A DNA stretch of 35,041 nucleotides from a virus, in the IMG/VR virus record IMGVR_UViG_3300025769_000393, positions 1-35,041 of that record. The stretch is one strand, 5' to 3'. Every line of letters starts with the position of its first letter. The stretch's first letter is position 1. The translations under genes were made by a program, and so were the position numbers. Below are positions 10,731 through 30,602 of the stretch, in pieces. A model generated the notes under the pieces. The model saw nothing but the letters and a program-made list of their open reading frames with translations, made no database searches and had not been told where the DNA came from.

Positions 10731-10753
10731 CTCTTTTACCAAATGAAAAACAA

Positions 10754-11302: not shown

Positions 11303-11321
11303 ATTATATATTTTTAAAATT

Positions 11322-11359: not shown

Positions 11360-11380
11360 TTAATTTATTGGTTAATCTAA

Positions 11381-12307: not shown

Positions 12308-12330
12308 TATCTATTTATTATAAGTTTATA

Positions 12331-12735: not shown

Positions 12736-12736
12736 T

Positions 12737-13327: not shown

Positions 13328-13366
13328 ATTTATATTACGTTATTGGTTATTTATTTTGCATTTTCA

Positions 13367-14433: not shown

Positions 14434-14456
14434 AATTTATTTCTATTTTAAATAAC

Positions 14457-16439
14457 TTATCCTATTGATGCTCCTTGCTCTATATTACGTTCTAATGCTT
14501 GTGCGTTTGTTATTTCGTTAGTTACTACAAATGCCTTTACAGGTTTTTGTTCTTGTTCGCCTATTGCTTGTGCAAGTTGATTTTCAGGTGCTGCGCCTAC
14601 TACATTAAATGCAGGTACATTAGATTGTCCTCTGCCTCCTTTAATATCTCCCCCTTTAGGTGCACCGCCTCCTCCTAATGCTTGTAATCCTTTAACAGTA
14701 GCTGCTATATTAGCCGCTATACCTATTCCTGCAGATATATTATTTGCAGCTACTATACCTGTTGCTGCTGCAACAGATGCACCTGCGGTTGGTATTGCCA
14801 ATGCTGCACCTTGGGCAGTTGCTGTTGCATTTGCTGCTTGTGTTTCGATTACAGTCTTTGCTATGCCTGCAGCACTTTGTCCAATTAATGCAACCGCTTG
14901 TAATTTTTTATTTTTACCTGCTAATTGAGAAAGTAAAGCAAATCCTGCTCCAATGTTATCTATATTCTGTTTTTGAATTTGTGCTTCGGCTTCTGCTACT
15001 TGTTTTTTTGCATCTATTTCTTTTTGAGCATCTGCTTGTCTTGCCTCATCTTTTAAAGAATAGTAATAATCTATTACTTGTTGTTTAGCTTCCTCACTAG
15101 CATTAAGAGCCTCTAGTTCTGCTAATTTATTAGCTTCTTCTAACTCTACTTTTTGAAGTTCAGTAACAGCTTTTTTCTCTAACTCTAATTGTGTGTACTC
15201 ATCTCTAATTTCTTGTAAAGCATCTAGCCTATCTTGTTCTTTAGCTTGTTCTTCCGCTATTCTTTTATCTTCCTCAGCTTTTTGTTTTCTTAATAACATT
15301 TGTCGCTGATTCTGTACCTCTCTTTGTCTGTTTATTTTTTTAGCTTCTAACTCAAATACTTTCTTTTCAAGTTCAGCTTGTTCATCAAGGTCTTCTTTTC
15401 TAGCTAAGGAAGTCATATCATTTTCCTTCTTCTTAGCCTCAAACCTTAATCTTGCAGCTTCTATTTCTTTATTAGTAATACCATCTTCGATAGTAATAGC
15501 CTCTTCTAAAAATTTTATTCTTTCTTCTGCGTTATATTTTTCTGTGTTATATGCTTTTGTTCTTAGTTCATTAACCTTAGCATTTGCCTTTTGTCTCTCT
15601 ACTATTAACTTTCTATCTATCTTATCTGCTTTAGCAATAGCATCAGACAATTCTCCTGCTGCTTTAATATCTTCTTTGATGTCTTTACTAAAGTTGCTGA
15701 CCTTTTCGCTTACAGTATCAAAAGTATCGCTTACAGCTTCTCCTATGTCTTTTATACTTCCTTTACCTGTTAAGAAATTACCTATTGCAGAAAATGTGTT
15801 TGTTATACCATTTCCTAATTTTGAAAACAATTCAATAGTATTAGCAATAATAGCTTTGCCTTGATTAAGTGCTTTTGTTAATTTATTCTGTCCTTCTTCA
15901 CTTCCTTGAAAAGCTGCTATTAAAGACCCTAATGCAACTACTAAAGCACCTACACCTGTTCCAATTAAAGCTACCTTAAATAACTTCATACCTTGTGTAG
16001 CTGCTCTTAGACCTTGTGCTAGTCCTGTAAACTTACTAAAGAGTCCTCCTGTTGCTCTATCTAATACTGAAGTACCTCCTATAGTTTTAGTTATGCCTTT
16101 AGATACTTCATTGTGAGCCTTAGCTTGTTCTTTTAGTTTTTTATTAAACTTAGCATTTTCATTATTAAGTTGTGTCTTAGCCTTTTTACTTTGTTTTAGT
16201 GCTAGGTTTTCCTGTTTAATAAGATTTTTAGTTTTTTCTATCTTATCATTTAATTGTTTTCTTCTCGCTAACTCTTTACCTGAACCTCCTAATTTACTAA
16301 GTTCAGCTTCCATTTTAAGAAGTTCCCTTTGAGCATCTGCTACATTATCTTCAAGTTTTACTATTTCCTCATCAAGAGTTCGTATCTGAGTAATAGCTTC
16401 TTTTGCGTTTAATTTTAGGTCAATTATTTTCTCTGCCAT
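14457..16439 (-). CDS. Tape measure protein
   Basis: This 660-residue protein sets tail length and is released during infection. Long heptad repeats cover about 1-115 and about 265-480, with hydrophobic segments near 145-180 ('ALIGTGVGALVVALGSLIAA') and an Ala/Gly-rich region at about 495-590 that may cross the host membrane. At roughly 1.5 angstrom per residue the tail would be near 100 nm. It starts inside the small gene at 16424-16576. No lysozyme or peptidase domain was seen. Confidence 0.82.
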   Translation of the reverse strand: MAEKIIDLKLNAKEAITQIRTLDEEIVKLEDNVADAQRELLKMEAELSKLGGSGKELARRKQLNDKIEKTKNLIKQENLALKQSKKAKTQLNNENAKFNKKLKEQAKAHNEVSKGITKTIGGTSVLDRATGGLFSKFTGLAQGLRAATQGMKLFKVALIGTGVGALVVALGSLIAAFQGSEEGQNKLTKALNQGKAIIANTIELFSKLGNGITNTFSAIGNFLTGKGSIKDIGEAVSDTFDTVSEKVSNFSKDIKEDIKAAGELSDAIAKADKIDRKLIVERQKANAKVNELRTKAYNTEKYNAEERIKFLEEAITIEDGITNKEIEAARLRFEAKKKENDMTSLARKEDLDEQAELEKKVFELEAKKINRQREVQNQRQMLLRKQKAEEDKRIAEEQAKEQDRLDALQEIRDEYTQLELEKKAVTELQKVELEEANKLAELEALNASEEAKQQVIDYYYSLKDEARQADAQKEIDAKKQVAEAEAQIQKQNIDNIGAGFALLSQLAGKNKKLQAVALIGQSAAGIAKTVIETQAANATATAQGAALAIPTAGASVAAATGIVAANNISAGIGIAANIAATVKGLQALGGGGAPKGGDIKGGRGQSNVPAFNVVGAAPENQLAQAIGEQEQKPVKAFVVTNEITNAQALERNIEQGASIG

Positions 16440-16576: not shown

Positions 16577-19233
16577 AATAGTGTTGTAGTATTTCTTAAT
16601 TCAGATAATGTATCTGCAAATGCGTAGTTGCTTGATGTGTTAGTTCTAGCGTAAAATTTAAAATATATAATAGTACCACTAGAAACACTTGTTACTTGAT
16701 AATTTACAATATTTGGATTTACATTCTTATTTTGTTGTGTTGTTGTAAACGCAGCTACATCAATTCCTGCTTTTGCTTTCAAGTCATCGATATTTTGTGT
16801 ATCGAAATTTGCAGCGTCTGTTGTATATAAAAATCCATATTCATCAATATTAGGTGTGTTTGAAATCGTACCTAGACTATTTATTTTATGTGATAAATAA
16901 ACAGAATTAGATGTGCTATCTTTTGAACCAACTGCACTAATTGATGCTTTTGTAACAATAACAGGTTCATCTATTAAAGTCTGTACAGGCTCGTTATGTG
17001 GATAAACCGTATCAGGGATTGGTTCGTTTGTAGAGGTAACATCTACACCATCGTAGAAACAAGAAGCATCTACTCTTAATGTTGCACTATCTGAATAAAT
17101 AGTAGTAGAATCAACAGTAATACAAGTTCTAACAGGCACGAATCTATCAGGTACTATAGGGTCTACTTCTATGACTGCTCCTGCATCCTCTTTTTTGTTT
17201 ATTAACTCTAACTTAGATTTTAATGTTTCAAAGTTTGTTGTTATTTTATTTATTCTGTAAAGGTTGTCAAATATTCTTATATCATCTGCTAACGATAAAT
17301 TCATTAACATAGACAAAGGTAGATATGCACTTACAGATGTTAATCTTCTTTGTGGGTCAAATATCTCTTGTACGTAGTTTTTGTAATAAGTATCAAATAA
17401 CGTTTGATTGTAAGGAACTAAACCAAACTCATTTATCTCTGCATTAAAGTTTAAGTTTTTAGAATCTGTAAGACTTACAGAATTAGATGGTACAAACACA
17501 CCTGTGTGTGATACTAAATCTCCATCACTTTCTATTACACCTATTGTTTCATTTTGTTGTATAGGATAAAATAGTAAAGGCTTACCAAGATTTGGTTCTT
17601 GCTTTACATCTGCACTCCATCCCCATTGCAAATCTGTGAATGTGCCTCCATTAATATCTTTTAACTTTTCGTACTTAAAATGTTCTAAAGGTACTGTAAT
17701 AGTATATGACTGCCCTTCAAACTTATCTGCTGCTCTGTATTGTAATGTACCCCACTCTTGATTAAATAGTTCGCTATGGTTTTTTGCAAAGAAGTTATCT
17801 TGTCCATCGTATCTTAGATTGACTTGCTTATAGGGTAATACGGAATCTACACTTGATTCGGTTTTATCCAAGTCCTTTGTTATATCGTGGATTACAGAAC
17901 TACTAGCATAGAAATCATCTAATGTTTTGACTTCTATTGTACCTGCATCGTTTTGGAAAGATGTAAGATTAAACATCTTAAACAAAGAAGTTAAAAAGTC
18001 TAAAACCTTAATATCAGGTAATTGATTTGCAGGTCTAAATTGTACATCTGTTAGCACCTCTGCATCCGCAGTAAAGAAAACATCATCCGTACCAAAACCA
18101 TCTCTTTCTATATATATTCTAAAGTCGTAGGTGCTGGGTGTATCTGATTCTATTGCAAAAGTATAGTTTCCTGCCTCTAATACAAGTTGTCTAATATCCC
18201 TGTACTCTAGCGTTGTGGCATCCCTTGAAATATTATCATACCTTTCATATACTTCTCCATTTTTATATATAATGAAGTTAAATTCATCAGCAACGGAAGG
18301 CACAATAGTTATATCCATCCTGCGTTCTTTTCTTCCTGCTACTGTTCCAACTTGGTCTGCTTGTGGTGTATCAAAATTGTTTGAAAATAAATCTATTGTA
18401 GAACCGTTAACATATCCTAAACTAAAGTTTCCTACGGGTGTTACATTACCTTCATTTTCAAAGAGACCTCCTGTTTTATTATGCAGCCACAAATAAAGAT
18501 TGTAGAAAGGTTCATTTGTAGTATTAAAGAAATCAGTACTAAACGTAATTCCGTATTGTTCCTCAATAGCTTTTATTATTGGATATATCCTAAGTGCAGG
18601 TTTTAATTGAGATAGTTGTAGTCCGTGTGTGCTTCCTGCTTCGTATGCTATGTTATTTTGAGTATCTGTATTGTCATAAGCTGAACCACTTGCAGAATCG
18701 TAAACAAGTCTTTTAGTGTGCGTTATAAGAGGAAACAAAATAGCATCTGTGTACGTAACACCTGAATGTGTAATATCCAAACCCCCACTCATATAAGACC
18801 TAATATTAGCATCTGAATATGTAAACTTAAACGCATCGTCTTTCAGCATTGCAAGTGCATCTAGTTTATCTTCTCCTAATAGGTCTTTTAAATTTATACC
18901 ATTACCAAAGAATGTAAGTTTGTAAGTGTGTGCTTTGTTGTCTCTTCTTGATGCACCTTCTAATTTTACTTTTCCTTTCTTAAATAGTTTGTAGTTTAAG
19001 TATAGTTCTGCTTCTTTTTTTTTACGTGCGTCAAATCCTATAATATGGTAATCATAGAAGTGTTGAAATATCTTGTTATTTGTTTTAGATGCAGGTACAC
19101 TAAACGACCTAGAAAAGTCCGTAAAAACCTTCTCTATGTCTTTTACATCCTGTAGGGTTTGTGTAAGTGTAACTGATTCATCTTGAAATAAATCTACTTC
19201 CTGACCTTCTATATATAGTTGTAGGTTTAGCAT
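16573..19233 (-). CDS. Large tail or base-plate protein
   Basis: The 886-residue protein starts 'MLNLQLYIEGQEVDLFQDES', then 'VEKVFTDFSRSFSVPASKTN'-like text, the N-terminal form seen in flavobacterial phage tail proteins from memory. The middle ('FRPANQLPDIKVLDFLTSLF' and 'YRINKITTNFETLKSKLELI') looks like hub domains. The last 170 residues are Thr/Ser-rich, with 'GFLYTTDAANFDTQNIDDLK' and a fibronectin-like 'NYQVTSVSSGTIIYFKFYA'. It is probably the distal tail or hub component that meets the tape measure. It starts by TAATG overlap. Confidence 0.7.
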   Translation of the reverse strand: MLNLQLYIEGQEVDLFQDESVTLTQTLQDVKDIEKVFTDFSRSFSVPASKTNNKIFQHFYDYHIIGFDARKKKEAELYLNYKLFKKGKVKLEGASRRDNKAHTYKLTFFGNGINLKDLLGEDKLDALAMLKDDAFKFTYSDANIRSYMSGGLDITHSGVTYTDAILFPLITHTKRLVYDSASGSAYDNTDTQNNIAYEAGSTHGLQLSQLKPALRIYPIIKAIEEQYGITFSTDFFNTTNEPFYNLYLWLHNKTGGLFENEGNVTPVGNFSLGYVNGSTIDLFSNNFDTPQADQVGTVAGRKERRMDITIVPSVADEFNFIIYKNGEVYERYDNISRDATTLEYRDIRQLVLEAGNYTFAIESDTPSTYDFRIYIERDGFGTDDVFFTADAEVLTDVQFRPANQLPDIKVLDFLTSLFKMFNLTSFQNDAGTIEVKTLDDFYASSSVIHDITKDLDKTESSVDSVLPYKQVNLRYDGQDNFFAKNHSELFNQEWGTLQYRAADKFEGQSYTITVPLEHFKYEKLKDINGGTFTDLQWGWSADVKQEPNLGKPLLFYPIQQNETIGVIESDGDLVSHTGVFVPSNSVSLTDSKNLNFNAEINEFGLVPYNQTLFDTYYKNYVQEIFDPQRRLTSVSAYLPLSMLMNLSLADDIRIFDNLYRINKITTNFETLKSKLELINKKEDAGAVIEVDPIVPDRFVPVRTCITVDSTTIYSDSATLRVDASCFYDGVDVTSTNEPIPDTVYPHNEPVQTLIDEPVIVTKASISAVGSKDSTSNSVYLSHKINSLGTISNTPNIDEYGFLYTTDAANFDTQNIDDLKAKAGIDVAAFTTTQQNKNVNPNIVNYQVTSVSSGTIIYFKFYARTNTSSNYAFADTLSELRNTTTLL

Positions 19234-20219
19234 TATCGTACATTGTTTATCTTATTAAACGCAAATTCAAAATCTATTGTGTAGTTTGCTAATTTGTCAT
19301 TTACTGATGTTTTTAATGTTAGTGATTTGCTTGTAGGTACTATAGGAAGTGTACTACTATCTTGTCTTATCCATACGCTTTCTGATAAAAACAGTTCTTC
19401 TATTGTACTATTACTATCTTCATTTATAAACCCTGTGTTTAAAGAAATGCTTTTTCTTGCGTTGGTGTTGTACCTTTCTTCTTGACCACCGTATTTCGGA
19501 TATGTGACTGTCGCGTTTTCAATCGTGTTTCGTTTAAACTTTTCGTCCGTTACATTGAATGATTCAGTTGATTTCTTAAAAAAATATAAATCTTGGAACG
19601 CTCCATACTTGTTTATAAAAGTAACTTTGTAAGGAGTGAATTTTGGTTCGCACACATTATTTACGTTTATAGTTTTAAGTAGTGTTGTATCGTCTGTATC
19701 GTAAACTTGTATAGTGCTACTATCTGCAGGTATTGTAACGTATTGTATTTTTTGGTTTGTATTACCACTATCTGTTATTTCTGTATCTGTTGAATCTATT
19801 GTAACCTTACCAACTCCTTCGGCAAATATTGGTAGTTTTCCTGCAACACCTTCAGGTAAGTATATTGTGTTTGCAGTCATTAATGCGTGTCTTTGTAGTT
19901 CAGGATTTATTTCATCTTCAAAATACCCAAACCCATTTACTGCTAAATAGTTATCACTTACAGGAGAACCATAAGTATATACAATATCGTTTTCATCTAA
20001 GATTGTAGCTACTGTTGTAACCCATACCGCTTGACTTAGATAGTCATTGTTAAAATCTGTTTTAAGATAATCACGTACAAGTTCTGCAATCTCAAATACT
20101 ACATTAGTATCTCCTGTCAAGATTTCTTTTTGTATTTCATATTTAAGGTCAGTTGTTACATACGACCCTACTGTACCTTCGTATATATATATTTTTAAAT
20201 CTACTGTCTTGATTGCCAT
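19233..20219 (-). CDS. Minor tail protein
   Basis: The 328-residue chain is beta-rich and opens 'MAIKTVDLKIYIYEGTVGSY', with 'FEIAELVRDYLKTDFNNDYL', then a midsection with 'KVTFINKYGAFQDLYFFKKS' and an end 'NYTIDFEFAFNKINNVR'. That matches tail-associated proteins that lie before the large tail gene in Bacteroidota phages. The start is at the stop region of the adhesin-like gene and the end overlaps the next start by a TAATG. Its precise place in the tail is not clear. Confidence 0.65.
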   Translation of the reverse strand: MAIKTVDLKIYIYEGTVGSYVTTDLKYEIQKEILTGDTNVVFEIAELVRDYLKTDFNNDYLSQAVWVTTVATILDENDIVYTYGSPVSDNYLAVNGFGYFEDEINPELQRHALMTANTIYLPEGVAGKLPIFAEGVGKVTIDSTDTEITDSGNTNQKIQYVTIPADSSTIQVYDTDDTTLLKTINVNNVCEPKFTPYKVTFINKYGAFQDLYFFKKSTESFNVTDEKFKRNTIENATVTYPKYGGQEERYNTNARKSISLNTGFINEDSNSTIEELFLSESVWIRQDSSTLPIVPTSKSLTLKTSVNDKLANYTIDFEFAFNKINNVR

Positions 20220-20221
20220 AA

Positions 20222-21826
20222 TTAGGTTAAATTATCTATTCGTCTAAACCTTCCAAGTTCCCATTCTACAAACCAGATTTCGCTTATAACACCATTTGTT
20301 TCTTGTTTTATATAATAAGATTCTACAACGTTTTTTGGTAATGGTGGTGCTATACCTTCGTTCTGTCTTGTTACCCTGTAGTATCTACCTCCTGATGGGT
20401 TCTGTGAGTTTGTTCTCCGTACATTGATTTGCGTTGTAGCATCATCGTGCCCTATACAGACTGGTTTATTAATGTTTTGTTCTATATAGATGGAATGTAA
20501 TGATACTTGCTGATTAGCATTACTAGCAAAAGTAGCATTATTACTTGTTCCGTATGTATTGTATCTTGCTTCAACACTTAAAGCTACATTATTCCAATAA
20601 GCAGGGTATCCTAAAGGAAAAGCTGCCTCTACTTGGTCTACTGTCATAAAATCTTGTCCAGTATCTATATACCAATTTGCATCTCCACAACTTAGAACTG
20701 CGACTGATGGAGGTTGGGTCATTGTTACACTACAAGTTATCTTTGCGCTATTGTTATTGTAACCACTAGATGGTGCAGTAACTTCAAAGTTTACTGTTCT
20801 TTCTGTACTAGATGATACTGTATCAAATTTTATAGGACTTAGGTTTGTAATAAAACCATTTCTTGCTCGACCTACTGAAATAATACCTGTAGATGTTATT
20901 GCTTGTCCTGATAAACCTGCTACCTCACAATCAAAAGTTGGTAATGCACTACTAGGTTGACTAAATGTCTTAGAACATATTACCTCTGCTCCTGCATTAG
21001 AATATCCTGCAGGTACTGTTATATCAAAGAATAATGTAACATCTCTCGCACTCCCTGTGTTGTTTGCACTATATGAAGTGATATGCGCACCTCCACTTGT
21101 TAAACTTTTAGACGCTACTGTTCCATTAACATCAGGGTCTGTTATAGTTCCATCTTGTGCTATAGTACCACCTGATAAATATGAATCATCACAGTCGTAT
21201 GTTTCTTGTGCAGTTGTCGTTACTTGTATTGATTGTGTTGCGTTACAAGTTAAATCATCTCCATCAGAAGCAGTTACATATAAGTTTTTAACTCCTGCTC
21301 TATAACCTCCTATTATCTCTAAATCATTCCCTGTTAGTATAGTAGTAAAAAAGTCAGGATAGTTGTTTAGTATGTTATAACTCTGTATTGGGTCAGTACC
21401 TTGTGTAAAGTAAGAACTTAAATCTATTGTTACTGTATCTCCTTGAGTGTCTATTGATTGATTAGGTATAGAACCATTTGTTGTTACACCTCCTGTACAA
21501 GTAAACACAGGTTGCGTTGCAGTTGCAGTACAATCTATAGTATCATCTGATGCATTACTAAAGTTAGGCGGAATAGAAATAGTAAAGGTTACTGTTCTAC
21601 TTGTTGCAGTTCCTACTGTTGAAAATCTACCATCACTAAAATCTCCATCCGTAGAAGTGTAGGATAGTATCGTTCCATAAGTTGTATTAGGTAATGTTAG
21701 TTCCCCAAATTGGTCTACACTAAAATTATTTAAGTTAATTAACGCACAGGTAAGTTCTACACTCGGTTCTGTAGGTTCTGAATAACTTAAATAGAATGGA
21801 CTTCTAACATTAATTTTTGTACTCAT
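20222..21826 (-). CDS. Repeat-containing virion adhesin-like protein
   Basis: This 534-residue protein has at least three related units of about 95-120 residues, each ending in a P-x-x-(Y/F)-x-N stretch, then I-x-C-x-x-T, then TQP or SQP and a further Cys: compare 'IPPNFSNASDDTIDCTATAT', 'VPAGYSNAGAEVICSKTFSQ' and 'APSSGYNNNSAKITCSVTMT'. The pattern is that of Ig-like surface domains. The C-terminal 140 residues are different (ending in 'ISEIWFVEWELGRFRR'). It probably decorates the tail and binds carbohydrate. No enzyme motif was seen. Confidence 0.7.
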   Translation of the reverse strand: MSTKINVRSPFYLSYSEPTEPSVELTCALINLNNFSVDQFGELTLPNTTYGTILSYTSTDGDFSDGRFSTVGTATSRTVTFTISIPPNFSNASDDTIDCTATATQPVFTCTGGVTTNGSIPNQSIDTQGDTVTIDLSSYFTQGTDPIQSYNILNNYPDFFTTILTGNDLEIIGGYRAGVKNLYVTASDGDDLTCNATQSIQVTTTAQETYDCDDSYLSGGTIAQDGTITDPDVNGTVASKSLTSGGAHITSYSANNTGSARDVTLFFDITVPAGYSNAGAEVICSKTFSQPSSALPTFDCEVAGLSGQAITSTGIISVGRARNGFITNLSPIKFDTVSSSTERTVNFEVTAPSSGYNNNSAKITCSVTMTQPPSVAVLSCGDANWYIDTGQDFMTVDQVEAAFPLGYPAYWNNVALSVEARYNTYGTSNNATFASNANQQVSLHSIYIEQNINKPVCIGHDDATTQINVRRTNSQNPSGGRYYRVTRQNEGIAPPLPKNVVESYYIKQETNGVISEIWFVEWELGRFRRIDNLT

Positions 21827-22371
21827 TTCTTAAATACTTTATCTATTGATACTTCAAATTCGTTGAACAATTGTTTTTCTAAGTTCTTTAAATGCTTTTC
21901 AAATGGTTTGGTAAAAAATAAACTAGCTTTTAATCCTTTGCTATAAATACTTCTTGCTACTAAAAATTGTATAGACTTTTCAAATCCTACTGTGCTAATC
22001 TTTCTGCCTGTAAACTTACCTTTTTGTCTTGGTGCTAGTCCTTTTCTTACTATCCATTTATCTAACTTACTAGGTGGTGGCATTTTATCTGTGTAAGCAT
22101 ATACAGTTTTTTTATCGTATGGTTGTTTCGCTGCATCTTTACCACCATAAGGTTTTACCGCTCCTTTTACACCTTTGTCTACATACTTACCATACTGTAA
22201 TCCTAAGAAGTTTAAGATAAATGTTTGTTCATCCTCTCCTAACTTAGCTTCTAAAGAATTGCCAAGATTACCTGTAACGTCTTTTCCTTGCGTTTTAAGT
22301 TCTTTTTTAGCTTCAAGTATAACTAAGTCCCCAAACTTTCTTAAAGTCTCTCTAACGTCCTCTAATCGCAT
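21823..22371 (-). CDS. HK97 gp10-like head-tail joining or tail completion protein
   Basis: The 182 residues fit the HK97 gp10-like family: 'LRKFGDLVILEAKKELK', 'DVTGNLGNSLEAKLGED', 'FLGLQYGKYVDKGVKGAVKP' and an arginine/lysine-rich 'KGLAPRQKGKFTGRKI'. Proteins of this family join the tail to the head connector. Neighbours are a tail-terminator-like gene upstream (10-base overlap) and the adhesin-like gene downstream (4-base overlap). Confidence 0.78.
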   Translation of the reverse strand: MRLEDVRETLRKFGDLVILEAKKELKTQGKDVTGNLGNSLEAKLGEDEQTFILNFLGLQYGKYVDKGVKGAVKPYGGKDAAKQPYDKKTVYAYTDKMPPPSKLDKWIVRKGLAPRQKGKFTGRKISTVGFEKSIQFLVARSIYSKGLKASLFFTKPFEKHLKNLEKQLFNEFEVSIDKVFKK

Positions 22372-22835
22372 ATACTGATGTCATTAGAAGTTATTATATC
22401 AAAAGTAAGTGCCCAACCTGCTACTAAATGTTCGAACCTATCTGTAAAAGGCTCACAACTAGCAACACCCTCTAATTGGTATTGGCTTGTAAATAAGTCA
22501 CCTCTTTTTAGTTCTATCATTAATCTATTCTGAACAGCTAACTGCGTATTAAGTATATCTTGTTCGTTATTATTGCCTCTAAATATATCTACAACTTCCT
22601 CTTTGCTTTGGTCTACTATGTCCATAGACAAGACTGATATATTAAAACTAACTGTGTTATTAGGAAAAGAAACATTGTTAACTACTATGTGTGAAAGAGG
22701 AAACATAGTTTGTTTACTTAAATCTATATCAGTAATGTTGCCAAAAGTAACTGTGTTGACATTAACATCCTCTAACAATTGGTTTTTTATTGTTTCAGTT
22801 ATTTGATAAAATGCTCTTGTTCCCTGCTGACTCAT
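22362..22835 (-). CDS. Tail terminator-like protein
   Basis: This 157-residue protein has the size and pattern of tail terminator/completion factors that cap the tail tube. It shows an N-terminal helix 'FYQITETIKNQLLEDV', mixed strands 'TMFPLSHIVVNNVSF' and 'NTVSFNISVLSMDIVDQSK', a helix 'NTQLAVQNRLMIELKRG', and a closing strand 'GWALTFDIITSNDISICD'. The neighbouring gp10-like gene makes this assignment likely. Confidence 0.68.
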   Translation of the reverse strand: MSQQGTRAFYQITETIKNQLLEDVNVNTVTFGNITDIDLSKQTMFPLSHIVVNNVSFPNNTVSFNISVLSMDIVDQSKEEVVDIFRGNNNEQDILNTQLAVQNRLMIELKRGDLFTSQYQLEGVASCEPFTDRFEHLVAGWALTFDIITSNDISICD

Positions 22836-23092
22836 TTATATTCTTTTGCTATTCTTTTTAATTGATTGTATCGCTTCTCTGTGTAGCTATTGTCTGAATT
22901 AAACACTCTGCCATATATGTAACCTAATTCTTCCGCAGGTGTTGTATTAGTATTAATAGAATCAAACTCAGCTTCTGTTAAGCAATTAGGTAAATGATAA
23001 GGAAAGATATTAGCAAGTGTTTTTTTAGTGTCACAGTTGCACTTACCACCTTTGCAAAACTTAATTTCTTTTACTTGTTTCTTTTTTTTCAT
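22832..23092 (-). CDS. Small Cys-containing protein, 86 residues
   Basis: A Lys-rich start is followed by 'FCKGGKCNCDTKK', a possible metal-binding knot, and then a helical part 'LTEAEFDSINTNTTPAEELG' and 'EKRYNQLKRIAKEYK'. It lies between the chaperone-like gene (4-base overlap) and the tail-terminator-like gene (4-base overlap). It may be a small tail-assembly factor. No family is recognised. Confidence 0.6.
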   Translation of the reverse strand: MKKKKQVKEIKFCKGGKCNCDTKKTLANIFPYHLPNCLTEAEFDSINTNTTPAEELGYIYGRVFNSDNSYTEKRYNQLKRIAKEYK

Positions 23093-23349
23093 TTATATAT
23101 TTTTTTTATCTGCTGTGCTTCTAGTTCGTTTTTCTCTTTCATAAAAGCTAACATAGTTAAACATTTTAAAGCCGAAAGTTTTGTGATATTTTCAAATCGT
23201 TCAATATCTCCGTTAGCGAGTGCAAAGACTGATTGATACCAACCCCATTTACTTCCAAAGTTTGCAACTGCTCCGAGGTCAGATTCTCCCCCAACTCCTT
23301 CCGAGTATAATTCAGGGAAAGACTCAGTAGTTCGCTTCTTAAATTCCAA
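23089..23349 (-). CDS. Frameshifted C-terminal part of the tail assembly chaperone-like protein
   Basis: This frame lies -1 relative to the 223-residue gene and has no convincing start of its own: the first codon is a TTG inside the slippery run. Its 86 residues begin 'EFKKRTTESFPELYSEGVGG' and include 'FGSKWGWYQSVFALANGDIE' and 'LTMLAFMKEKNELEAQQIKK', the T-type domain of phage tail chaperones. A -1 slip at 23348-23356 would join it to residues 1-163, giving a 249-residue product. It overlaps the other frame by 184 bases, which supports frameshifting over independent translation. Confidence 0.65.
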   Translation of the reverse strand: MEFKKRTTESFPELYSEGVGGESDLGAVANFGSKWGWYQSVFALANGDIERFENITKLSALKCLTMLAFMKEKNELEAQQIKKIYK

Positions 23350-23837
23350 AAAAAAACCATAGCACCTAAAGGAATATTTAAAGGCACATCTAGCATTTTG
23401 TCTGCATTGTCTGTACCATTGTAATCTTCTATAATATATCTATCGCCTTTTCTGTACTCAATAGGTCTATATAAAATACTCATAGCCTTGTGCATATTTT
23501 TCCAAGAGCCTAAATAAGTGTCAAGGTCAATATACTCTCCTAATGTTATGTCGTCTAGCTTAGGTATAAAACCATACTCTCTGTCATCTAATTTAAACAC
23601 ACTAACTAAATCTGTGTCTTGTTCTAGCAAACTATAAATATGATTTGTAATATCTCTAAGGTCGTTGAATTTAATTTGTAATGTAAGTTCTAAATCTACC
23701 TTGCAAAATATTTCTACTGTCTTTTGCATAAGAAAGGTACTGTCTTGATTGCTTTCAATATTTACCTTTTCAAACTCCATATACTGTTTAAGAGTAATAT
23801 CTTCTATGGTGTCAGGTATTTGCAAATGTAACTTCAT
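23166..23837 (-). CDS. Tail assembly chaperone-like protein (short, unshifted form)
   Basis: The 223-residue product starts 'MKLHLQIPDTIEDITLKQYM' and includes 'LDDITLGEYIDLDTYLGSWK' and 'NIPLGAMVFFWNLRSELLSL'. It is a common protein of flavobacterial phages, by memory, with no firm family name. After residue 163 the reading frame meets a run of nine T residues, where -1 slippage would switch to the frame ending at 23089. The arrangement matches lambda G/GT logic. The start at 23837 follows a terminator (23869-23898), so it begins a new unit. Confidence 0.7.
   Translation of the reverse strand: MKLHLQIPDTIEDITLKQYMEFEKVNIESNQDSTFLMQKTVEIFCKVDLELTLQIKFNDLRDITNHIYSLLEQDTDLVSVFKLDDREYGFIPKLDDITLGEYIDLDTYLGSWKNMHKAMSILYRPIEYRKGDRYIIEDYNGTDNADKMLDVPLNIPLGAMVFFWNLRSELLSLSLNYTRKELGENLTSEQLQTLEVNGVGINQSLHSLTEILNDLKISQNFRL
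23348..23357 (-). promoter_or_regulatory. Candidate -1 ribosomal frameshift site
   Basis: On the minus strand nine T residues (23356-23348) follow G at 23357. Codons GTT TTT TTT TGG in frame 0 can re-pair as TTT TTT TTG in the -1 frame. T TTT TTT is a classical slippery heptamer. The two frames overlap by 184 bases, which is long for normal gene overlap here, where 1-25 bases is usual. Confidence 0.68.
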
Positions 23838-23868
23838 ACTTGTATAACGTATTTAAAAAAAGTTTTAT

Positions 23869-23898
23869 AAAAAAAGAGCAGCCTATTAAAGCTGCCCC
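23869..23898 (-). terminator. Rho-independent terminator before the virion gene block
   Basis: Minus-strand GGGCAGC (23897-23891) pairs with GCTGCTC (23882-23876) around an eight-base loop, with seven pairs including one G-U, and seven U residues follow. It separates the small accessory genes (ending at 23926) from the chaperone-like gene at 23837. Confidence 0.8.
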
Positions 23899-23925
23899 AA
23901 GTTAAACAAAAAAAACAAATGAAAC

Positions 23926-24288
23926 TTAGCCTTTTGGATGGTCGGCTAATAACCAATATTCTTTCTCACATTTTTCGGAGCAGAAACTTTTCATATATCG
24001 CTCGTCTATTCTTTCGTTGCAATTATCACAACAATAGTTTTCTTTATATGTGTCTATAATATGTTCTGCTATCTCTGACCAATTAACATCATTGATAAAT
24101 GCTAAGGCATAGCTTTCTGCTAAATCATTCTTTGACTCTAACATTTGTTCTACATATTCTTTTAGACATTGACCAAACTCATATTTACTTAAGTTGTCTA
24201 TATCCTCTGCCCAATTATCAGAATCTATATTGTCAAATATTTCTAAGTTTATTCTCCAAGTAGCGTAATTTGTCCAACCGTTATGCAT
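23926..24288 (-). CDS. DUF7249-like protein with a zinc-ribbon-type end
   Basis: The 120 residues open 'MHNGWTNYATWRINLEIFD', the signature of a small family (DUF7249-like) found in phages and plasmids. The middle is helical. The end carries CCDNC and CSEKC (about residues 86-110), so four Cys residues in two CxxC/CxxxC pairs could bind zinc. The role is unknown. It sits after the terminase genes and just before a terminator, which suggests an accessory or anti-host function. Confidence 0.7.
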   Translation of the reverse strand: MHNGWTNYATWRINLEIFDNIDSDNWAEDIDNLSKYEFGQCLKEYVEQMLESKNDLAESYALAFINDVNWSEIAEHIIDTYKENYCCDNCNERIDERYMKSFCSEKCEKEYWLLADHPKG

Positions 24289-24571
24289 TTTTCCAGGCTT
24301 TAGAGTTTCTAAATAATTCTACTTTTCTTTCGTGGCTACCTAATACCTTACCACATAATCTAATAGCTTCAGTATAATACCTGCTACCTTTCTTAATAGT
24401 CTTAACCTTGCCCATTGCATTGGTAAGTTGAAAACTATCCTCAGCAATATAATACTGTCTGCTGTCATAACCAAAGCTAGTAGGCTCTTGGTCTGTCTTG
24501 ATGCTGCCGATATACTTACCATCGACATAATACTCTAGTGAGTAACCTAAATGTTCAAATACTTGTGTCAT
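24281..24571 (-). CDS. Hypothetical protein, 96 residues
   Basis: I prefer the ATG at 24571 (MTQVFEHLGYSLEYYVDGKY) to the one at 24628, which would add a hydrophobic tail overlapping the small membrane gene. The chain has a beta part ('DSRQYYIAEDSFQLTNAMGK') and a basic helix ('RYYTEAIRLCGKVLGSHERK'). It overlaps the next gene by 8 bases. No family is recognised. Confidence 0.6.
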   Translation of the reverse strand: MTQVFEHLGYSLEYYVDGKYIGSIKTDQEPTSFGYDSRQYYIAEDSFQLTNAMGKVKTIKKGSRYYTEAIRLCGKVLGSHERKVELFRNSKAWKNA

Positions 24572-24596
24572 AATTTCTATTCTTTGTTTCTTAAAT

Positions 24597-24743
24597 TTAT
24601 AAAAAAATATTGAAGAAGGCAAATACATAAAGCCAAATATATATATTAGCTACCATACCTATGCCTAATAAAATGGATTGCAACCATCTTTTCGGTGTCA
24701 TAAACTCCCACCAATCTTTTAATATTTCAAAATCTGTTTTCAT
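24597..24743 (-). CDS. Small membrane protein, 48 residues
   Basis: The ATG at 24743 opens a frame that ends with TAA at 24597-24599. It starts 'MKTDFEILKDWWEFMTPKRW', continues into a single hydrophobic helix of about 25 residues, and ends in 'FFNIFL'. Two Trp pairs stand near the membrane face. It follows a promoter-like element at 24766-24795. It may be a superinfection-exclusion or envelope-targeted peptide. That is inference from topology only. Confidence 0.6.
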   Translation of the reverse strand: MKTDFEILKDWWEFMTPKRWLQSILLGIGMVANIYIWLYVFAFFNIFL

Positions 24744-24765
24744 AATATTGCTTTAAAATTATACT

Positions 24766-24795
24766 TAAAGATAAGACCTTTTTCTGAGTTATCAA
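24766..24795 (-). promoter_or_regulatory. Candidate promoter after the terminase gene
   Basis: Minus-strand TTG (24795-24793), a 19-base spacer, then TATCTTTA (24773-24766), 22 bases before the ATG at 24743. The boxes and the spacer length equal those at 1815-1844. The region 24744-24813 is one of the few intergenic stretches in this part of the genome. Confidence 0.55.
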
Positions 24796-24813
24796 AATAT
24801 TTTAATAACTATT

Positions 24814-25980
24814 TTATCTTATAACGTATTTACCAAAGTTAGGTTTGCTTAAAATACTATAAGTTCCATAGCGTAAAGCATCAATCAAGTGATTGTGTCT
24901 GTCTATTGGTTTATTTATTGTCTTACCACTTCTGTCCTCATCCCACTTATAGTTTCTAAACTCTTGTATGGCATTGTTGCTGTCTTGTGTTAAGTGTATT
25001 TTGTATCGCTTTAATAAGTCTATACCTGCATTAATACTATCTCTACCTTTTATACTAGGTCTAATATTCCAACCCATCCTTCTTAGTTCGTCTATTAAAC
25101 GCACTTCGGCTGAGTCTGCCCATATCATTTCCCTATCTATATTTAAGCTACTAAGAAATTTATTTATATCAGTAGTGGTCATCATAGTGCGATACAGAAA
25201 CTCTTTAGCATAAAGATTATAACCATCTATCCAAATACCTATTAAGGTTGTAGGGTCATTAGTATATCCAAAGTCCATACCATAAGAAAGAAACTTAGCT
25301 GTTTCAGGTATGTAATTAACTTCAACGTATCTGAATATAGTCGACTTGCTTACCCCTTTAATACCTAAGCCATATATCTGCCAATACTGTTCGTCTGTTT
25401 CTCTTAGCCTTTGAATCTCCTGCTTGATGCTATCTCCTAAGAATGGATTGTCTAAATAGGTAGTTATAAAAAAATCACAGTCCTCTCTAGGTATTACCTT
25501 GTCATAAATCCAATGGTATTCATCTGAGGGATTGTAATCTATTATTACCTTTTCCTTTGTTCTAAATAAAAGCTGTTGCCAATCTTCCCAAAATAATTCA
25601 TTAGCCTCATTAATAAATAGTAAGTCTCTTTTTCTACCTCTTACCTTTTGTGGTTGGTCTAAAGAAATAAATTCCACTAGGTTACCATATAAAACGTACT
25701 CACTACTAGACTTATTGTGTGACTCTTCACTATACATTTGATACTGCTGTAATATCTGTATAAAATCTCGCATCACAGAGGCTCTAAGTGAGGGAAAAGT
25801 TTTGCGACATATAGTTATAGTCTTGCCTCTATTCTCAGGGCAGTAATAAAATATAATCCAAATAAGTATGTTATATGTTTTGCCCGAGCGTGTACCACCT
25901 TGCTCTACTATTATTTTTTTGTCAGAGTTTAGTAGATGCTTACATACAACATTTGTATCAATCGTGGATTGTTTCACCAC
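24814..25980 (-). CDS. terL: Terminase large subunit
   Basis: This 388-residue motor packages DNA and cuts the concatemer. Walker A is GGTRSGKT at 28-35 and the Walker B/catalytic Glu is in LLFINEAN (Glu125). The RNase H-like nuclease shows Asp236 in 'YGMDFGYTNDP', Asp289 in 'IWADSAE' and Asp367 in 'HLIDALRYG'. It is at the short end for the family. The start is GTG, inside the small terminase gene (23-base overlap). The phage-encoded base modification genes run straight into this pair. Confidence 0.93.
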   Translation of the reverse strand: MVKQSTIDTNVVCKHLLNSDKKIIVEQGGTRSGKTYNILIWIIFYYCPENRGKTITICRKTFPSLRASVMRDFIQILQQYQMYSEESHNKSSSEYVLYGNLVEFISLDQPQKVRGRKRDLLFINEANELFWEDWQQLLFRTKEKVIIDYNPSDEYHWIYDKVIPREDCDFFITTYLDNPFLGDSIKQEIQRLRETDEQYWQIYGLGIKGVSKSTIFRYVEVNYIPETAKFLSYGMDFGYTNDPTTLIGIWIDGYNLYAKEFLYRTMMTTTDINKFLSSLNIDREMIWADSAEVRLIDELRRMGWNIRPSIKGRDSINAGIDLLKRYKIHLTQDSNNAIQEFRNYKWDEDRSGKTINKPIDRHNHLIDALRYGTYSILSKPNFGKYVIR

Positions 25981-26314
25981 TTTCTATAATATTGATTCTA
26001 ATATCGTTAGGCAGACCCTCAGCACCTGTTATTTCTTGTCGTTCTACATAGCCTCTCCTTTTGCCTTTAGTCTTTAAATAAAATATAGTTGCAGCAGTAT
26101 TGCCTCCTTTAATTTGTTGATGCAGTTGACTCTCAGCAAAATCAAGAGCAATGTCTTGTATTGAATCTACCTCAGCTTTAAACTCAGGGTCTTTTAACCA
26201 CTCATAAAATTGTGTCCTACCTATACCAACTTGCTTACAAGCTGTGGTAACTACCCCTAAGGATTTTTCTAAGGCTTCTATTACTGCCTTTTTATGTTGT
26301 TCGGTTTTGTTCAT
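25958..26314 (-). CDS. terS: Terminase small subunit
   Basis: The 118-residue DNA-binding partner recognises the packaging site. A helix-turn-helix is visible in 'GVVTTACKQVGIGRTQFYEW' (about 20-39), followed by a helical oligomerisation part and the 'TKGKRRGYVERQEITGAEG' tail typical of small terminases. It starts by ATGA overlap with the folE fusion and ends inside terL. Confidence 0.82.
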   Translation of the reverse strand: MNKTEQHKKAVIEALEKSLGVVTTACKQVGIGRTQFYEWLKDPEFKAEVDSIQDIALDFAESQLHQQIKGGNTAATIFYLKTKGKRRGYVERQEITGAEGLPNDIRINIIESGETIHD

Positions 26315-27159
26315 TTCTTAATTGAGTTAAAAAATTCTAATCTAGCTTCATTACTATCTTTGAACGCTCCTATTAGTTTAGTAGTTGTTGTCCAAGTGTC
26401 GTGCTTTTTTACTCCTCTCATTTCCATACACATATGTTTAGCAGATAATGATACTGCTACTCCTTTGGCTTCTAATTTGTCTTGCAAAAATTCAGCTACC
26501 TGTGTAGTTATTCTTTCTTGGTTCTGTAACCTATGAGCAAACAAATCTAATGTTCTAGCTAATTTACTTAGTCCTACTATCTTATCTTTTGGTATGTAAG
26601 CTATATGACCATAACCAAAAAAAGGTGCTATGTGGTGTTCGCATAATGAGTAAAAAGGTATATTAGTTTGAACTATCATTTCATCATATCCCTCACTACT
26701 AAATGTGGTAAAGTTCCAATCAGGTATAGTTAAAAACTGTTTAAAAAACTTAACATATCTCTTAGGTGTTTCTTGTAGTCCTTCTCTAGTGACATCCTCT
26801 CCAAAGTATTGCAATAGCCTTGTGACATTATCTTCTACATTACCATTATGATTCTCCCAAGGAAATACTATCCACTCTCCTTTATACTCTTGTCTTTTAT
26901 CTATTAATGCTGCAAATGGTTTATTGTATTTTTTGTATTGTTTTAGTGTCGCTCCACTATCAATTAAATCATCTACTATTACATCAGCTTGTTCTATTGT
27001 GTCTACTGCATTACCTAACATACCTGCTATTATTTGTCCACCTCTAGGTACACCATAGTATTTTGTGTTAGGCTCGTAAGCAGATTTTAGATAACTGAGT
27101 CTGTTATATATTTCTTTCCAACTTATATTAGTTTTTAAACTCCTGTTTTCTTGTTCCAT
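26311..27159 (-). CDS. folE: Phosphoribosyltransferase fused to GTP cyclohydrolase I (FolE)
   Basis: FolE turns GTP into dihydroneopterin triphosphate, the first step to 7-deazaguanine bases. Residues about 105-282 hold the FolE core: 'PFYSLCEHHIAPFFGYGHIA' with Cys173 and His176, and Cys244 in 'KHMCMEMRG' as zinc ligands. Residues about 1-100 are a second domain with VPRGG (37-41) and the PRPP loop VIVDDLIDSGATL (60-72), a type I phosphoribosyltransferase. Free FolE is usually near 200 residues, so this is a true extension. The transferase could salvage guanine. It overlaps queE by 25 bases and terS by 4. Confidence 0.9.
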   Translation of the reverse strand: MEQENRSLKTNISWKEIYNRLSYLKSAYEPNTKYYGVPRGGQIIAGMLGNAVDTIEQADVIVDDLIDSGATLKQYKKYNKPFAALIDKRQEYKGEWIVFPWENHNGNVEDNVTRLLQYFGEDVTREGLQETPKRYVKFFKQFLTIPDWNFTTFSSEGYDEMIVQTNIPFYSLCEHHIAPFFGYGHIAYIPKDKIVGLSKLARTLDLFAHRLQNQERITTQVAEFLQDKLEAKGVAVSLSAKHMCMEMRGVKKHDTWTTTTKLIGAFKDSNEARLEFFNSIKK

Positions 27160-27863
27160 ATTTCTATATGTAATCTAGTTGTAAAATTTAAATGATTCTT
27201 CTTTGCTAGTTCTACAACTGTCTCTTTGTTTTCATTAAGCAGTTCTTGATTCTCACCTGCAGGCATTAAATATACTTTTTTCTTATCTACTAAGAATAAG
27301 TAATCGTCTTTTATTTCTTGCCATTCCTTTTCAGAGTTGACTACAAACTTAAAAATAGTGTTATGCTTGTTTAGTTCTTTTATTACATCAGGTTTGTATG
27401 TTATGCTTTTGTCGTTTCCGCTGTTAGTTAGTTTCGGACTACAATTCCAAAGACCGATATTATTTAATAAAAAATCACTAGGCATTATTGTGCCATTTGT
27501 TTCTACTTCAAAAAACGCATCTACATTTAAACTAAACTTTACATACTTAATAAATTCCTCTAATGCCGGTTGTTGCATTGTAGGCTCTCCACCTGTTAAA
27601 ATAATATGTGCGCCATTTTTTATAGCTTCTATACATTCCTCATCTAAAACATCCTGCATCTCTTTGCTCTGTGCTTTCATCCACACCTCAACTGTATCAC
27701 ATCTCCACTCAGCATCATTGTGTAACTCTCCATCAAATTGAGTACCCATTCCTCCACACATTAAATTACAGCCTCCTAGTCTAACAAATACACTTGGCAC
27801 TCCTACTGTTTTGCCTTCCCCTTGTATGGAGTAGAACACTTCGCTAATTGCTAACTTCTTCAT
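27135..27863 (-). CDS. queE: 7-carboxy-7-deazaguanine synthase (QueE)
   Basis: This radical SAM enzyme rearranges carboxytetrahydropterin to 7-carboxy-7-deazaguanine. The 242-residue protein opens 'ISEVFYSIQGEGKTVGVPSV', the standard QueE start, and has the iron-sulfur cysteines at 32, 36 and 55 (CNLMC, then WRCDT). The gap between the second and third Cys is much longer than in the usual CX3CX2C, a variant seen in some QueE. 'HIILTGGEPTMQ' (about 90-101) binds SAM. It lies between queD and folE, with overlaps of 20 and 25 bases. Confidence 0.92.
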   Translation of the reverse strand: MKKLAISEVFYSIQGEGKTVGVPSVFVRLGGCNLMCGGMGTQFDGELHNDAEWRCDTVEVWMKAQSKEMQDVLDEECIEAIKNGAHIILTGGEPTMQQPALEEFIKYVKFSLNVDAFFEVETNGTIMPSDFLLNNIGLWNCSPKLTNSGNDKSITYKPDVIKELNKHNTIFKFVVNSEKEWQEIKDDYLFLVDKKKVYLMPAGENQELLNENKETVVELAKKNHLNFTTRLHIEIWNKKTGV

Positions 27864-28251
27864 ATATAATTGTGCTTGATTTTGTTTCGGCTAATTCTAT
27901 TCTAGTTATAGGTAATTTGCCTTCGTTTTTTATTCTATTGAATATCCATATAGCCATATTCTCTGCACTTGTTTCAAATGGTACAGATATAAATGGCTCG
28001 TCTGCTAATCTAAATACATCTACTAATGGGTCTTCTTCAAATAAAATAAAGTAGTGGTCATATTTTTTTATAATAGGTTCGGCTATATTATCTATATCTG
28101 AAAACAACATAGTGACACCATCTTTCATTTCGGTAAACTTAAACTCACATACTACATCATAGGTGTGTCCGTGTAACCTGCCACATTTTTCTCCTGCATT
28201 TTTATTTCTATGCCCTGCGTAAAAGTGATATTTTTTTCTGATTTTAATCAT
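27844..28251 (-). CDS. queD: 6-carboxytetrahydropterin synthase (QueD)
   Basis: QueD converts dihydroneopterin triphosphate to 6-carboxytetrahydropterin. The T-fold protein has 135 residues. The zinc ligands His14, His27 and His29 lie in 'YHFYAGHRN' and 'LHGHTYDV', and Cys23 in 'EKCGRLHGH' is the catalytic nucleophile. 'KYDHYFILFEED' and 'ELAETKSSTIIYEE' match further active-site strands. It overlaps the glycosyltransferase gene by 8 bases. Confidence 0.92.
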   Translation of the reverse strand: MIKIRKKYHFYAGHRNKNAGEKCGRLHGHTYDVVCEFKFTEMKDGVTMLFSDIDNIAEPIIKKYDHYFILFEEDPLVDVFRLADEPFISVPFETSAENMAIWIFNRIKNEGKLPITRIELAETKSSTIIYEEVSN

Positions 28252-29395
28252 TTATAATCCTTTTAATATATTCATACTCGTGCCAAATATTTAATTCAGC
28301 ACCATCATAATCATTACTAACTATGTGTGCTTCTAATCTTCTACCCCAATCTGATAATATAGCTAGTTCTACTTTATTTTTATCATTTTTATCTTTTGAT
28401 TTATTTAAAGCCTTAACTGCAGAATCAATGCTAAATGGTGTGTATTTATTTTTTAAATGATACATTTCTTCAAAACTTCTAAAGTTAGGATAAACTAAAT
28501 TACATCTAAACGCATCTGCTTCTAATGCTGTCCAACTAACATAGTCTTGTAGAGAACAATTAAATTGTATTTTTGCCTCACTCAATTCGTAGTAATATTC
28601 TTGTTTAGTTAAATTTTTCTTTAGAACAAATCTTTTGTTTTGTTTGGCATAATTTTCTAAATCTTCTACTACTCCTTTTACACTACTTCTAAAATTTGTT
28701 CCACTTGTTGTTAATATAAAATTCCAATCTTGATTTTGTTTTAGAAACTTTTTTGCAACCTCAAGTAAGAAGTAAGGATTTTTTTCCTTATCTAATCTGC
28801 TAGTATATATAACGTTGTTTTTTTTAATTCTAATATCAGGAGCAGTTTTAAGAACATCTTGTACGTCTAAAGGTAAACTAACAACGTGTATTGGTGCTTT
28901 AAATCCTGCTGCTCTTAGTTGCTCTTTATGTATGGTGCTACCAACAAATATACCTGTCATTCTATTATCAAGACCTAGTTCATAAAACCTCATCCAATCT
29001 TTCATCACATAGGTAAAATCATACTCATCTACTGACTGTGCGTGTAACATTGCATACACCTTTATATTTTTATAACCATAGGAATCTAAAGCATAAAAAA
29101 TAGAATCAATACCTGATGTCCAATAGTCTTGTAAAAAAATAACATCTCCATCTTTTACTTTTGATGTCCTAATTTTATCTAGGAAGTTATTGCATTGACT
29201 CAAACTATATTGCCCTCTACCTACTGCATCTAACACAGCACCTACCCTAATTTCTTTTCCTGTTTGAAGTTCTCCCTTGACAGGTATAAAATTAACATCA
29301 TACTTTTCAAATGCTTTTGGCATCCAAATATTAGATAATTGATAAGTGTATCTTTCTTTTAGTGGCTCTAAGCCAAAATACCATATGTTTTTCAT
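28244..29395 (-). CDS. GT-B glycosyltransferase in the deazaguanine operon
   Basis: The 383-residue protein fits GT-B glycosyltransferases (GT4/GT1-like). The C-terminal lobe starts at 'VIYTSRLDKEKNPYFLLEVA' (about 195-214) with the nucleotide-sugar binding strand and helix, and ends with 'SWTALEADAF' (about 287-296), close to the donor-binding EX7E region. The N-terminal lobe opens 'MKNIWYFGLEPLKERYTYQL'. The gene is locked between the dpdA-side genes and queD by 4- and 8-base overlaps, so it belongs to the modification operon. I infer a sugar transfer to the modified DNA base. A capsid glycosyltransferase is the alternative. Confidence 0.78.
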   Translation of the reverse strand: MKNIWYFGLEPLKERYTYQLSNIWMPKAFEKYDVNFIPVKGELQTGKEIRVGAVLDAVGRGQYSLSQCNNFLDKIRTSKVKDGDVIFLQDYWTSGIDSIFYALDSYGYKNIKVYAMLHAQSVDEYDFTYVMKDWMRFYELGLDNRMTGIFVGSTIHKEQLRAAGFKAPIHVVSLPLDVQDVLKTAPDIRIKKNNVIYTSRLDKEKNPYFLLEVAKKFLKQNQDWNFILTTSGTNFRSSVKGVVEDLENYAKQNKRFVLKKNLTKQEYYYELSEAKIQFNCSLQDYVSWTALEADAFRCNLVYPNFRSFEEMYHLKNKYTPFSIDSAVKALNKSKDKNDKNKVELAILSDWGRRLEAHIVSNDYDGAELNIWHEYEYIKRIIND

Positions 29396-29736
29396 AATAC
29401 TATTGCTCCATTTTCGTTGTCTTCTAATACCTCAACTGAATAACAGTCAAACTCTTTGTATATTATTTTTGCTATTTGTTCGCAACTTAACAATTGGAAG
29501 TCTAGCAATTGCATTTCTAAATTCCAAAACCTTTTGTGTAAGTAGTTTATTATTTGTTTTTTAAACTTTATTATTTCTATATCTCTATCATCGTGGCTTA
29601 CCTCTTTTTTTACATTGATATAAAAGTTATGCCTGTGTAAGTTTAAAAGATATTCTACTTCTTTAATGTCACAATCTTTCCATTGATGCACACCTTCAGC
29701 TATAATATTAACTACTATTAGTGTTTTTGCTTCCAT
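29392..29736 (-). CDS. Unknown small protein of the deazaguanine operon
   Basis: The 114 residues open 'MEAKTLIVVNIIAEGVHQWK', then 'EVEYLLNLHRHNFYINVKKE', 'VSHDDRDIEIIKFKKQIINY'. The spaced His/Arg/Asp cluster and the E-I-I-K-F-K strand/helix look like a reduced T-fold of the QueD type, without the QueD Cys. It overlaps dpdA by 19 bases and the glycosyltransferase by 4. It is probably an operon partner: an accessory subunit or a further pterin/deazaguanine enzyme. No family name is claimed. Confidence 0.6.
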   Translation of the reverse strand: MEAKTLIVVNIIAEGVHQWKDCDIKEVEYLLNLHRHNFYINVKKEVSHDDRDIEIIKFKKQIINYLHKRFWNLEMQLLDFQLLSCEQIAKIIYKEFDCYSVEVLEDNENGAIVL

Positions 29737-30602
29737 TGATTATAATTTATGTTGTCTAAGTTATTATTTATATAAAGTAGCACATTTAATTGATGTGTAT
29801 TTGCTATTGCTAAAAATAAATTCAATCCTAACCTTTTAGCATATTGTTGATACTTTGTATATGCAACAGCGTTTAACATTGTTCCTATACTTCTTGCTCC
29901 CTTATGGTTGTCTAAATCACTAAAGTCCTTAGGCGTTACCTTTAGTTCTTCTAAGGCTTGTTTTAAACCTATTGGCATTTTCTTTTTTTTAGTTAAAATG
30001 TCTATGTATCTAACGGACTTAATTTTATCTTCAAACCAATTTAATATACCATACACCTCACTTGATTGCAACCAACTACTGCTGTCTACAGAATGTAAAG
30101 GCAATCTAAATATATCATTGTATTGTACAAATCCTAAAGCGTGTATATCTGCTTTGCTATTTTTGTACACATCTTGATACCTTTTTAACATCCAATCTCC
30201 TCTATTTGTAACACCACCTGCGACACATAAATGTTTTTGATTTTGTACTGCTTCATTAAGAAACTCCCAATCATTATCATACTCAGTAAAAACATACATA
30301 GGATTAAATCCTCTGTCTAACATTGTGTGATAATTTTGTCTTGTCTTTTGTTCGTTTTTAATAACATCAAGCATTACATATTTTTCTACCTTATGTGCGT
30401 TTGTTTCTAAATAAGTACAATAACTATCAAGGTTTAGCTTAGACACTTTTTTTGCATTGTATATAGTAAAAGCACCGCTATCAATCATTACATTGGCATT
30501 ACCCTTTACGCTTTCATTCATTACAGCATCATTGAACTTTGGTGCTTTACCTGTATAAGCGTAGCTAACTAATATGTTAAAGTGTGTGTTATTTGACTTC
30601 AC
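29718..30602 (-). CDS. dpdA: DpdA-like DNA-guanine transglycosylase
   Basis: DpdA enzymes, relatives of tRNA-guanine transglycosylases, exchange guanine in DNA for a 7-deazaguanine base. This 294-residue protein shows 'NVMIDSGAFTIYN' (Asp41), 'KYVMLDVIKN' (Asp79), 'LCVAGGVTNRG' and 'FRLPLHSVDSSSWL' (Asp173), with 'ARSIGTMLNAVAYTKY' later. The acid residues in these loops are the likely nucleophile and base. Size fits phage members. It shares 14 bases with the ParB gene. The downstream QueD, QueE and FolE genes make the assignment strong. Confidence 0.85.
   Translation of the reverse strand: MKSNNTHFNILVSYAYTGKAPKFNDAVMNESVKGNANVMIDSGAFTIYNAKKVSKLNLDSYCTYLETNAHKVEKYVMLDVIKNEQKTRQNYHTMLDRGFNPMYVFTEYDNDWEFLNEAVQNQKHLCVAGGVTNRGDWMLKRYQDVYKNSKADIHALGFVQYNDIFRLPLHSVDSSSWLQSSEVYGILNWFEDKIKSVRYIDILTKKKKMPIGLKQALEELKVTPKDFSDLDNHKGARSIGTMLNAVAYTKYQQYAKRLGLNLFLAIANTHQLNVLLYINNNLDNINYNQWKQKH

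What the first reader, a model, noticed from the sequence alone, without database searches (positions are those of the whole stretch)
23089..23837. Programmed -1 frameshift in a tail assembly chaperone-like gene
Nine T residues at 23356-23348 form a slippery run where codons GTT TTT TTT re-pair in the -1 frame. The second frame lacks an own start beyond the TTG in the run, overlaps the first by 184 bases and has the typical chaperone T domain. The fusion product has 249 residues, the unshifted one 223. This phage class is rarely annotated with it.
Basis: partly seen in the sequence, partly recalled or inferred. Interest (0 to 1): 0.74.

Follow-up and report, generated by a model that had tools for sequence, protein, structure and literature searches.

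The report
Tail-gene frameshift by RNA-polymerase slippage
A gene in a marine Bacteroidota phage encodes two proteins that share a front half and differ in their tails, through a run of nine identical DNA letters kept at nine or ten in every one of about 180 relatives, which suggests that the copying enzyme (RNA polymerase) slips there rather than the ribosome, as textbook tail-chaperone genes would have it.

Summary
In detail: ORF1 (223 aa), a -1 frame with no useful start of its own, T9 at 23356-23348, a 249-aa fusion. It is not chance or a sequencing error: 178 related loci plus the window keep the second part in the -1 frame with T9 (158) or T10 (21) at the junction, never 7 or 8. A ribosomal -1 slip needs only T_TTT_TTT; here nine or more T's are kept in all three codon registers, with no stimulatory RNA structure or SD-like element. 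Nine is the published threshold for transcriptional slippage at A/T runs in many bacteria. A second, unrelated chaperone family of Bacteroidota phages (11b type) shows A9/A10 in 78 of 78 complete loci, whereas 12 Bacillota chaperones with a weakly similar T part use ordinary heptamers or none, without long runs. Best reading: two products made by RNA-polymerase slippage, working like lambda gpG/gpGT. Unexpected: the unshifted product keeps a conserved overlapping ~55-codon tail (dual coding), and one distant clade uses two separate genes. No RNA or protein data exist.

The parts
23166..23837 (-). ORF1, unshifted product, 223 aa: N domain (residues 1-163) plus zero-frame tail
   Evidence: N part matches phrog_32199, unknown function
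23348..23356 (-). T9 slippage run; zero frame ATG GTT TTT TTT TGG
   Evidence: T9/T10 at all 179 two-frame junctions
23089..23349 (-). -1-frame C part (86 codons + stop, TTG GAA TTT AAG ...), fused to residue 163 of ORF1
   Evidence: phrog_38404, unknown function, is matched by 7 members of the family alignment
23166..23348 (-). dual-coding overlap: zero-frame tail of 60 codons kept open
22832..23092 (-). 86-aa ORF whose ATG overlaps the stop of the fusion frame; no family match
22362..22835 (-). 157-aa morphogenesis gene, perhaps tail terminator (phrog_30964, unknown function; role by inspection)
21823..22371 (-). 182-aa tail-completion/Neck1-like gene (phrog_29822; the 130-aa L093 protein hits both this PHROG and Neck1 PHROGs)
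14457..16439 (-). likely tape measure protein, 660 aa
   Evidence: PHROG tape measure hits, E 7e-8
24814..25980 (-). terminase large subunit

Best explanation
One gene makes two proteins with a shared N domain. While transcribing the T9 run, host RNA polymerase realigns on the homopolymer, so part of the mRNA carries an extra U. U9 mRNA gives the 223-aa product; U10 mRNA, read by ordinary translation, gives the 249-aa fusion; U8 mRNA would stop within a few codons. The two products most likely act like gpG and gpGT, as tape-measure chaperone and as linker to the tail tube. Shown at sequence level: the frame relation, conservation of a run of 9 or more, absence of starts in the second frame in many relatives, constraint on both frames. 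Inferred: that the polymerase rather than the ribosome slips, the product ratio, and the chaperone role.
For: (1) 179/179 two-frame junctions have T9 or T10, none 7-8; 100 clusters at 90% identity, 73 at 70%. (2) The run occurs in all three codon phases with at least 12 label changes on the tree, and flanking residues change (VFFY, FFFL, AFFF, GFFL, NFFF, SFFF, IFFL), so neither register nor protein sequence alone explains length 9. (3) Background chance of 9 or more given 7 or more is 31/314. (4) RNA folding z about 0 on both sides; SD-like 4-mers in only 6 of 73. (5) Nine nt is the length at which selection against A/T runs appears in many bacteria (PMC1088944); slippage on 9 A/T is established, and U_UUU_UUU shifts far less than A_AAA_AAG on E. 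coli ribosomes (PMC5009743). (6) Unrelated 11b-type chaperone family, MTP-G-T-TMP order: A9 (50) or A10 (28), -1 frame, in 78 of 78 complete viral loci. (7) 12 Bacillota chaperones, longest homopolymer 7, eleven with classical heptamers in register. (8) A clade with separate N-only-like and N+C genes and no run suggests both products are needed.
Against: No RNA or protein data. Every run also contains T_TTT_TTT in register, so ribosomal slippage is not excluded; some phage ribosomal shifts need no stimulators (PMC5009743), and a longer run might help the ribosome. Part of the nine T's may be held by the V/I/L-F-F-Y/W residues. The slippage threshold of Bacteroidota RNA polymerase is not known to me. 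The link of the Bacillota controls to the 11b type is weak (E about 5e-3).
Confidence: 0.68

Rival explanations
1. Programmed -1 ribosomal frameshifting on the U run, with two tRNA-Phe re-pairing on U_UUU_UUU.
For: Heptamer in register at all T-run junctions; -1 direction; it is the known mechanism for lambda-type G/GT (PMC5009743).
Against: Seven U's would suffice, but 9 or more are always kept in every register; U_UUU_UUU shifts weakly on E. coli ribosomes; no structure or SD-like element; the 11b family uses A9/A10 while Bacillota chaperones use short heptamers.
Confidence: 0.25
2. Two separate genes, the second started inside or near the run (TTG).
For: A TTG lies in the run in the window and some relatives; P12024L is annotated as two ORFs; a distant clade has two genes.
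Against: Many relatives have no start codon in the -1 frame before its conserved part; the alignment of fusions continues through the junction.
Confidence: 0.03
3. Phase variation or sequencing error: the run toggles between in-frame and out-of-frame lengths in DNA.
For: Homopolymers are error-prone and mutable; small length differences occur among isolates of other families.
Against: No in-frame version among 179 junctions of this family; T10 genomes keep the -1 relation by a changed codon register.
Confidence: 0.02
4. Two-product recoding is right, but the protein is another morphogenesis factor, not a tail-assembly chaperone.
For: No similarity to known chaperones; gene sits between terminase and neck genes, away from the tape measure.
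Against: Architecture and size resemble G/GT; it lies in the morphogenesis module near tail-completion-like genes.
Confidence: 0.2

Closest known systems
Phage lambda gpG/gpGT tail assembly chaperones and their counterparts in other long-tailed phages
   Same: two products with a common N part, C part in the -1 frame, a phage morphogenesis gene
   Different: homopolymer T9/T10 instead of a heptamer such as G_GGA_AAG; ~55-codon conserved zero-frame tail; order terminase-chaperone-neck-...-tape measure; no sequence similarity found
Programmed transcriptional slippage on 9A/9T (Thermus dnaX, IS elements, Shigella type III secretion genes)
   Same: A/T run of 9 or more at a conserved frame junction
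   Different: a phage gene; a tail chaperone expressed this way was not found in the papers searched
11b-type tail chaperone of Flavobacterium/Cellulophaga phages (L191, L197, L203-L282)
   Same: run of 9-10 identical bases, -1 frame, Bacteroidota phages
   Different: A instead of T, unrelated sequence, canonical position just before the tape measure, short overlap

Membership tests
Tail assembly chaperone (lambda G/GT type) | two proteins from one gene through a frame junction | tested here: met
   sequence level only:
Tail assembly chaperone (lambda G/GT type) | directly upstream of the tape measure gene | tested here: not met
   six genes lie between
Tail assembly chaperone (lambda G/GT type) | sequence profile match to a known chaperone family | tested here: not met
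Tail assembly chaperone (lambda G/GT type) | chaperone fold | not testable with these tools
Tail assembly chaperone (lambda G/GT type) | binds tape measure and tube protein, absent from the virion | not testable with these tools
   bench work
Programmed transcriptional slippage | conserved A/T run of about 9 or more at the junction | tested here: met
Programmed transcriptional slippage | run length kept irrespective of codon register | tested here: met
Programmed transcriptional slippage | mRNA of mixed run length | not testable with these tools
   needs RNA sequencing
Programmed -1 ribosomal frameshifting | X_XXY_YYZ heptamer in register | tested here: met
   T_TTT_TTT
Programmed -1 ribosomal frameshifting | stimulatory structure or SD-like element (not always needed) | tested here: not met

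The most novel reading that the evidence does not exclude
Bacteroidota phages, in at least two unrelated tail-chaperone lineages, have replaced ribosomal frameshifting by RNA-polymerase slippage on runs of 9-10 A or T to set the ratio of two chaperone products; in the window's lineage the unshifted product also has its own conserved C-terminal tail, so 183 bases code in two frames.
Probability: 0.6. Interest if true: 0.75.

Novelty: new variant of a known kind. Interest (0 to 1): 0.6.

Why it matters
The G/GT ratio in tail assembly is a textbook case of ribosomal frameshifting. If a large phage group sets it at transcription instead, the ratio depends on host RNA polymerase, not ribosomes; gene finders and heptamer-based frameshift tools will misjudge these genes (P12024L and PHROGs list the halves as separate unknowns); and a paired comparison, A/T run of 9 or more against a heptamer, becomes available to ask why host phyla differ. 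RNA sequencing of one infected culture can test it.

Tried and rejected
Structure prediction (closed), so no fold search. Pfam, NCBIfam and PDB profile searches gave nothing. A structure stimulating a ribosomal shift: none. Chance, sequencing error and phase variation: rejected by 179/179 junctions with no in-frame version. The +1 frame closes within 7 codons in all 179 loci: fits slippage, but may follow from dual coding, so not weighed. Opposite shift directions at homologous runs (phi17:1 A10/-1 against phi18:2 A9/+1; P2559S A8/+1 against L202 A9/-1) would be decisive if real, but could be homopolymer sequencing errors, so not counted. The L093 upstream ORF as a G-like paralogue rests on a weak profile match (10 bits). 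Prophage survey: 3 of 397 genomes of one family match, so the gene is mainly viral.

Full report
On the minus strand ORF1 runs 23837-23166 (223 aa). T9 sits at 23356-23348 in ATG GTT TTT TTT TGG. The -1 frame is open 23439-23089. The fusion has 249 residues. The window is a 35,041-base virus record.

Relatives. A scan of viral contigs with the fusion gave 80 loci. The search patterns did not include the run. In 179 of 180 sequences, the window included, the C part is in the -1 frame of the N part, and the longest run at the junction is T9 (158) or T10 (21). Two further loci from whole genomes also have T9. Redundancy is high, but 100 clusters remain at 90% identity, 73 at 70% and 46 at 60%.

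Why polymerase rather than ribosome. A ribosomal -1 slip needs seven T's in one register. The family shows six run arrangements (T9 and T10, phases 0, 1, 2) with at least 12 changes on the tree, always 9 or more. Flanking residues vary with them. Elsewhere in the loci only 31 of 314 T runs of 7 or more reach 9. Folding of 60-100 bases downstream and 60 upstream gives mean z about 0, and SD-like 4-mers are rare; this is weak evidence, since some phage shifts lack stimulators (PMC5009743). Published work puts the onset of selection against A/T runs at nine in many bacteria (PMC1088944), reports slippage on 9 A or T, and ranks U_UUU_UUU well below A_AAA_AAG on E. coli ribosomes (PMC5009743).

A second family. 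Scanning other Bacteroidota phages for homopolymers at frame junctions pointed to Flavobacterium phage 11b: G-like ORF 17864-18202, A9 at 18173, -1-frame T part, then a gene similar to annotated tape measures. Its T part is 46% identical to that of Cellulophaga phi10:1 and weakly similar (E about 5e-3) to annotated tail chaperones of Lactobacillus and Enterococcus phages. In viral contigs 78 of 78 complete loci have A9 (50) or A10 (28) and the -1 frame; two truncated loci could not be read. phi10:1 reads A8 with +1. Twelve Bacillota chaperones of the LfeSau/EH-TP1 type are all -1; eleven have classical heptamers in register, one none that I found, and no homopolymer exceeds 7.

Dual coding. 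In this family the zero frame stays open a median of 56 codons past the run, against 5 when -1-frame codons are resampled synonymously; 157 of 179 loci have p below 0.05 (loci are not independent). Substitutions in the overlap spread over codon positions between the patterns of the two single-frame regions. The Nonlabens clade keeps only about 15-24 codons.

A natural two-gene version. L093 and three viral relatives (L188-L190) encode an N+C protein in one frame with no run, preceded by an overlapping ORF of about 182-186 aa that weakly matches the N domain. This suggests that both products are needed; the weak match is the caveat.

Function. The gene lies between terminase genes and a tail-completion/Neck1-like gene, in a genome where a 660-aa gene is the likely tape measure. 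No library names either part.

Prior art. No paper found in the held library reports transcriptional slippage for tail chaperones or this feature in Bacteroidota phages; subscription literature was not searchable.

Noticed in passing
window 19015-19023: A second run in a coding gene: A9 on the coding strand of the 886-aa tail gene (16573-19233), phase 0; the other two frames close within 8 and 13 codons, so probably not programmed.
   Followed up: partly
window 26311-30602: Queuosine-type genes: GTP cyclohydrolase, QueE-like, QueD-like and a queuine tRNA-ribosyltransferase-like gene, suggesting 7-deazaguanine modification.
   Followed up: no
window 8532-25980: Unusual module order: terminase, chaperone-like gene, neck and tail genes, tape measure, protease-like gene, capsid-type gene, portal.
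   Followed up: no
L285 1483 and L286 1484: Cellulophaga phi17:1 has A10 (T part in -1) and phi18:2, about 96% identical, has A9 (T part in +1): real length variation or sequencing error.
   Followed up: partly
L195 14747 and L202 2492: Croceibacter P2559S has A8 (+1) while its close relative L202 has A9 (-1) at the same junction before the tape measure.
   Followed up: partly
L093 5220-6504: The two chaperone-like genes lie on the strand opposite to the surrounding head and tail genes.
   Followed up: no
L088: A family member on a contig labelled Epsilonproteobacteria MAG, nested among Bacteroidota sequences; probably misbinned.
   Followed up: no
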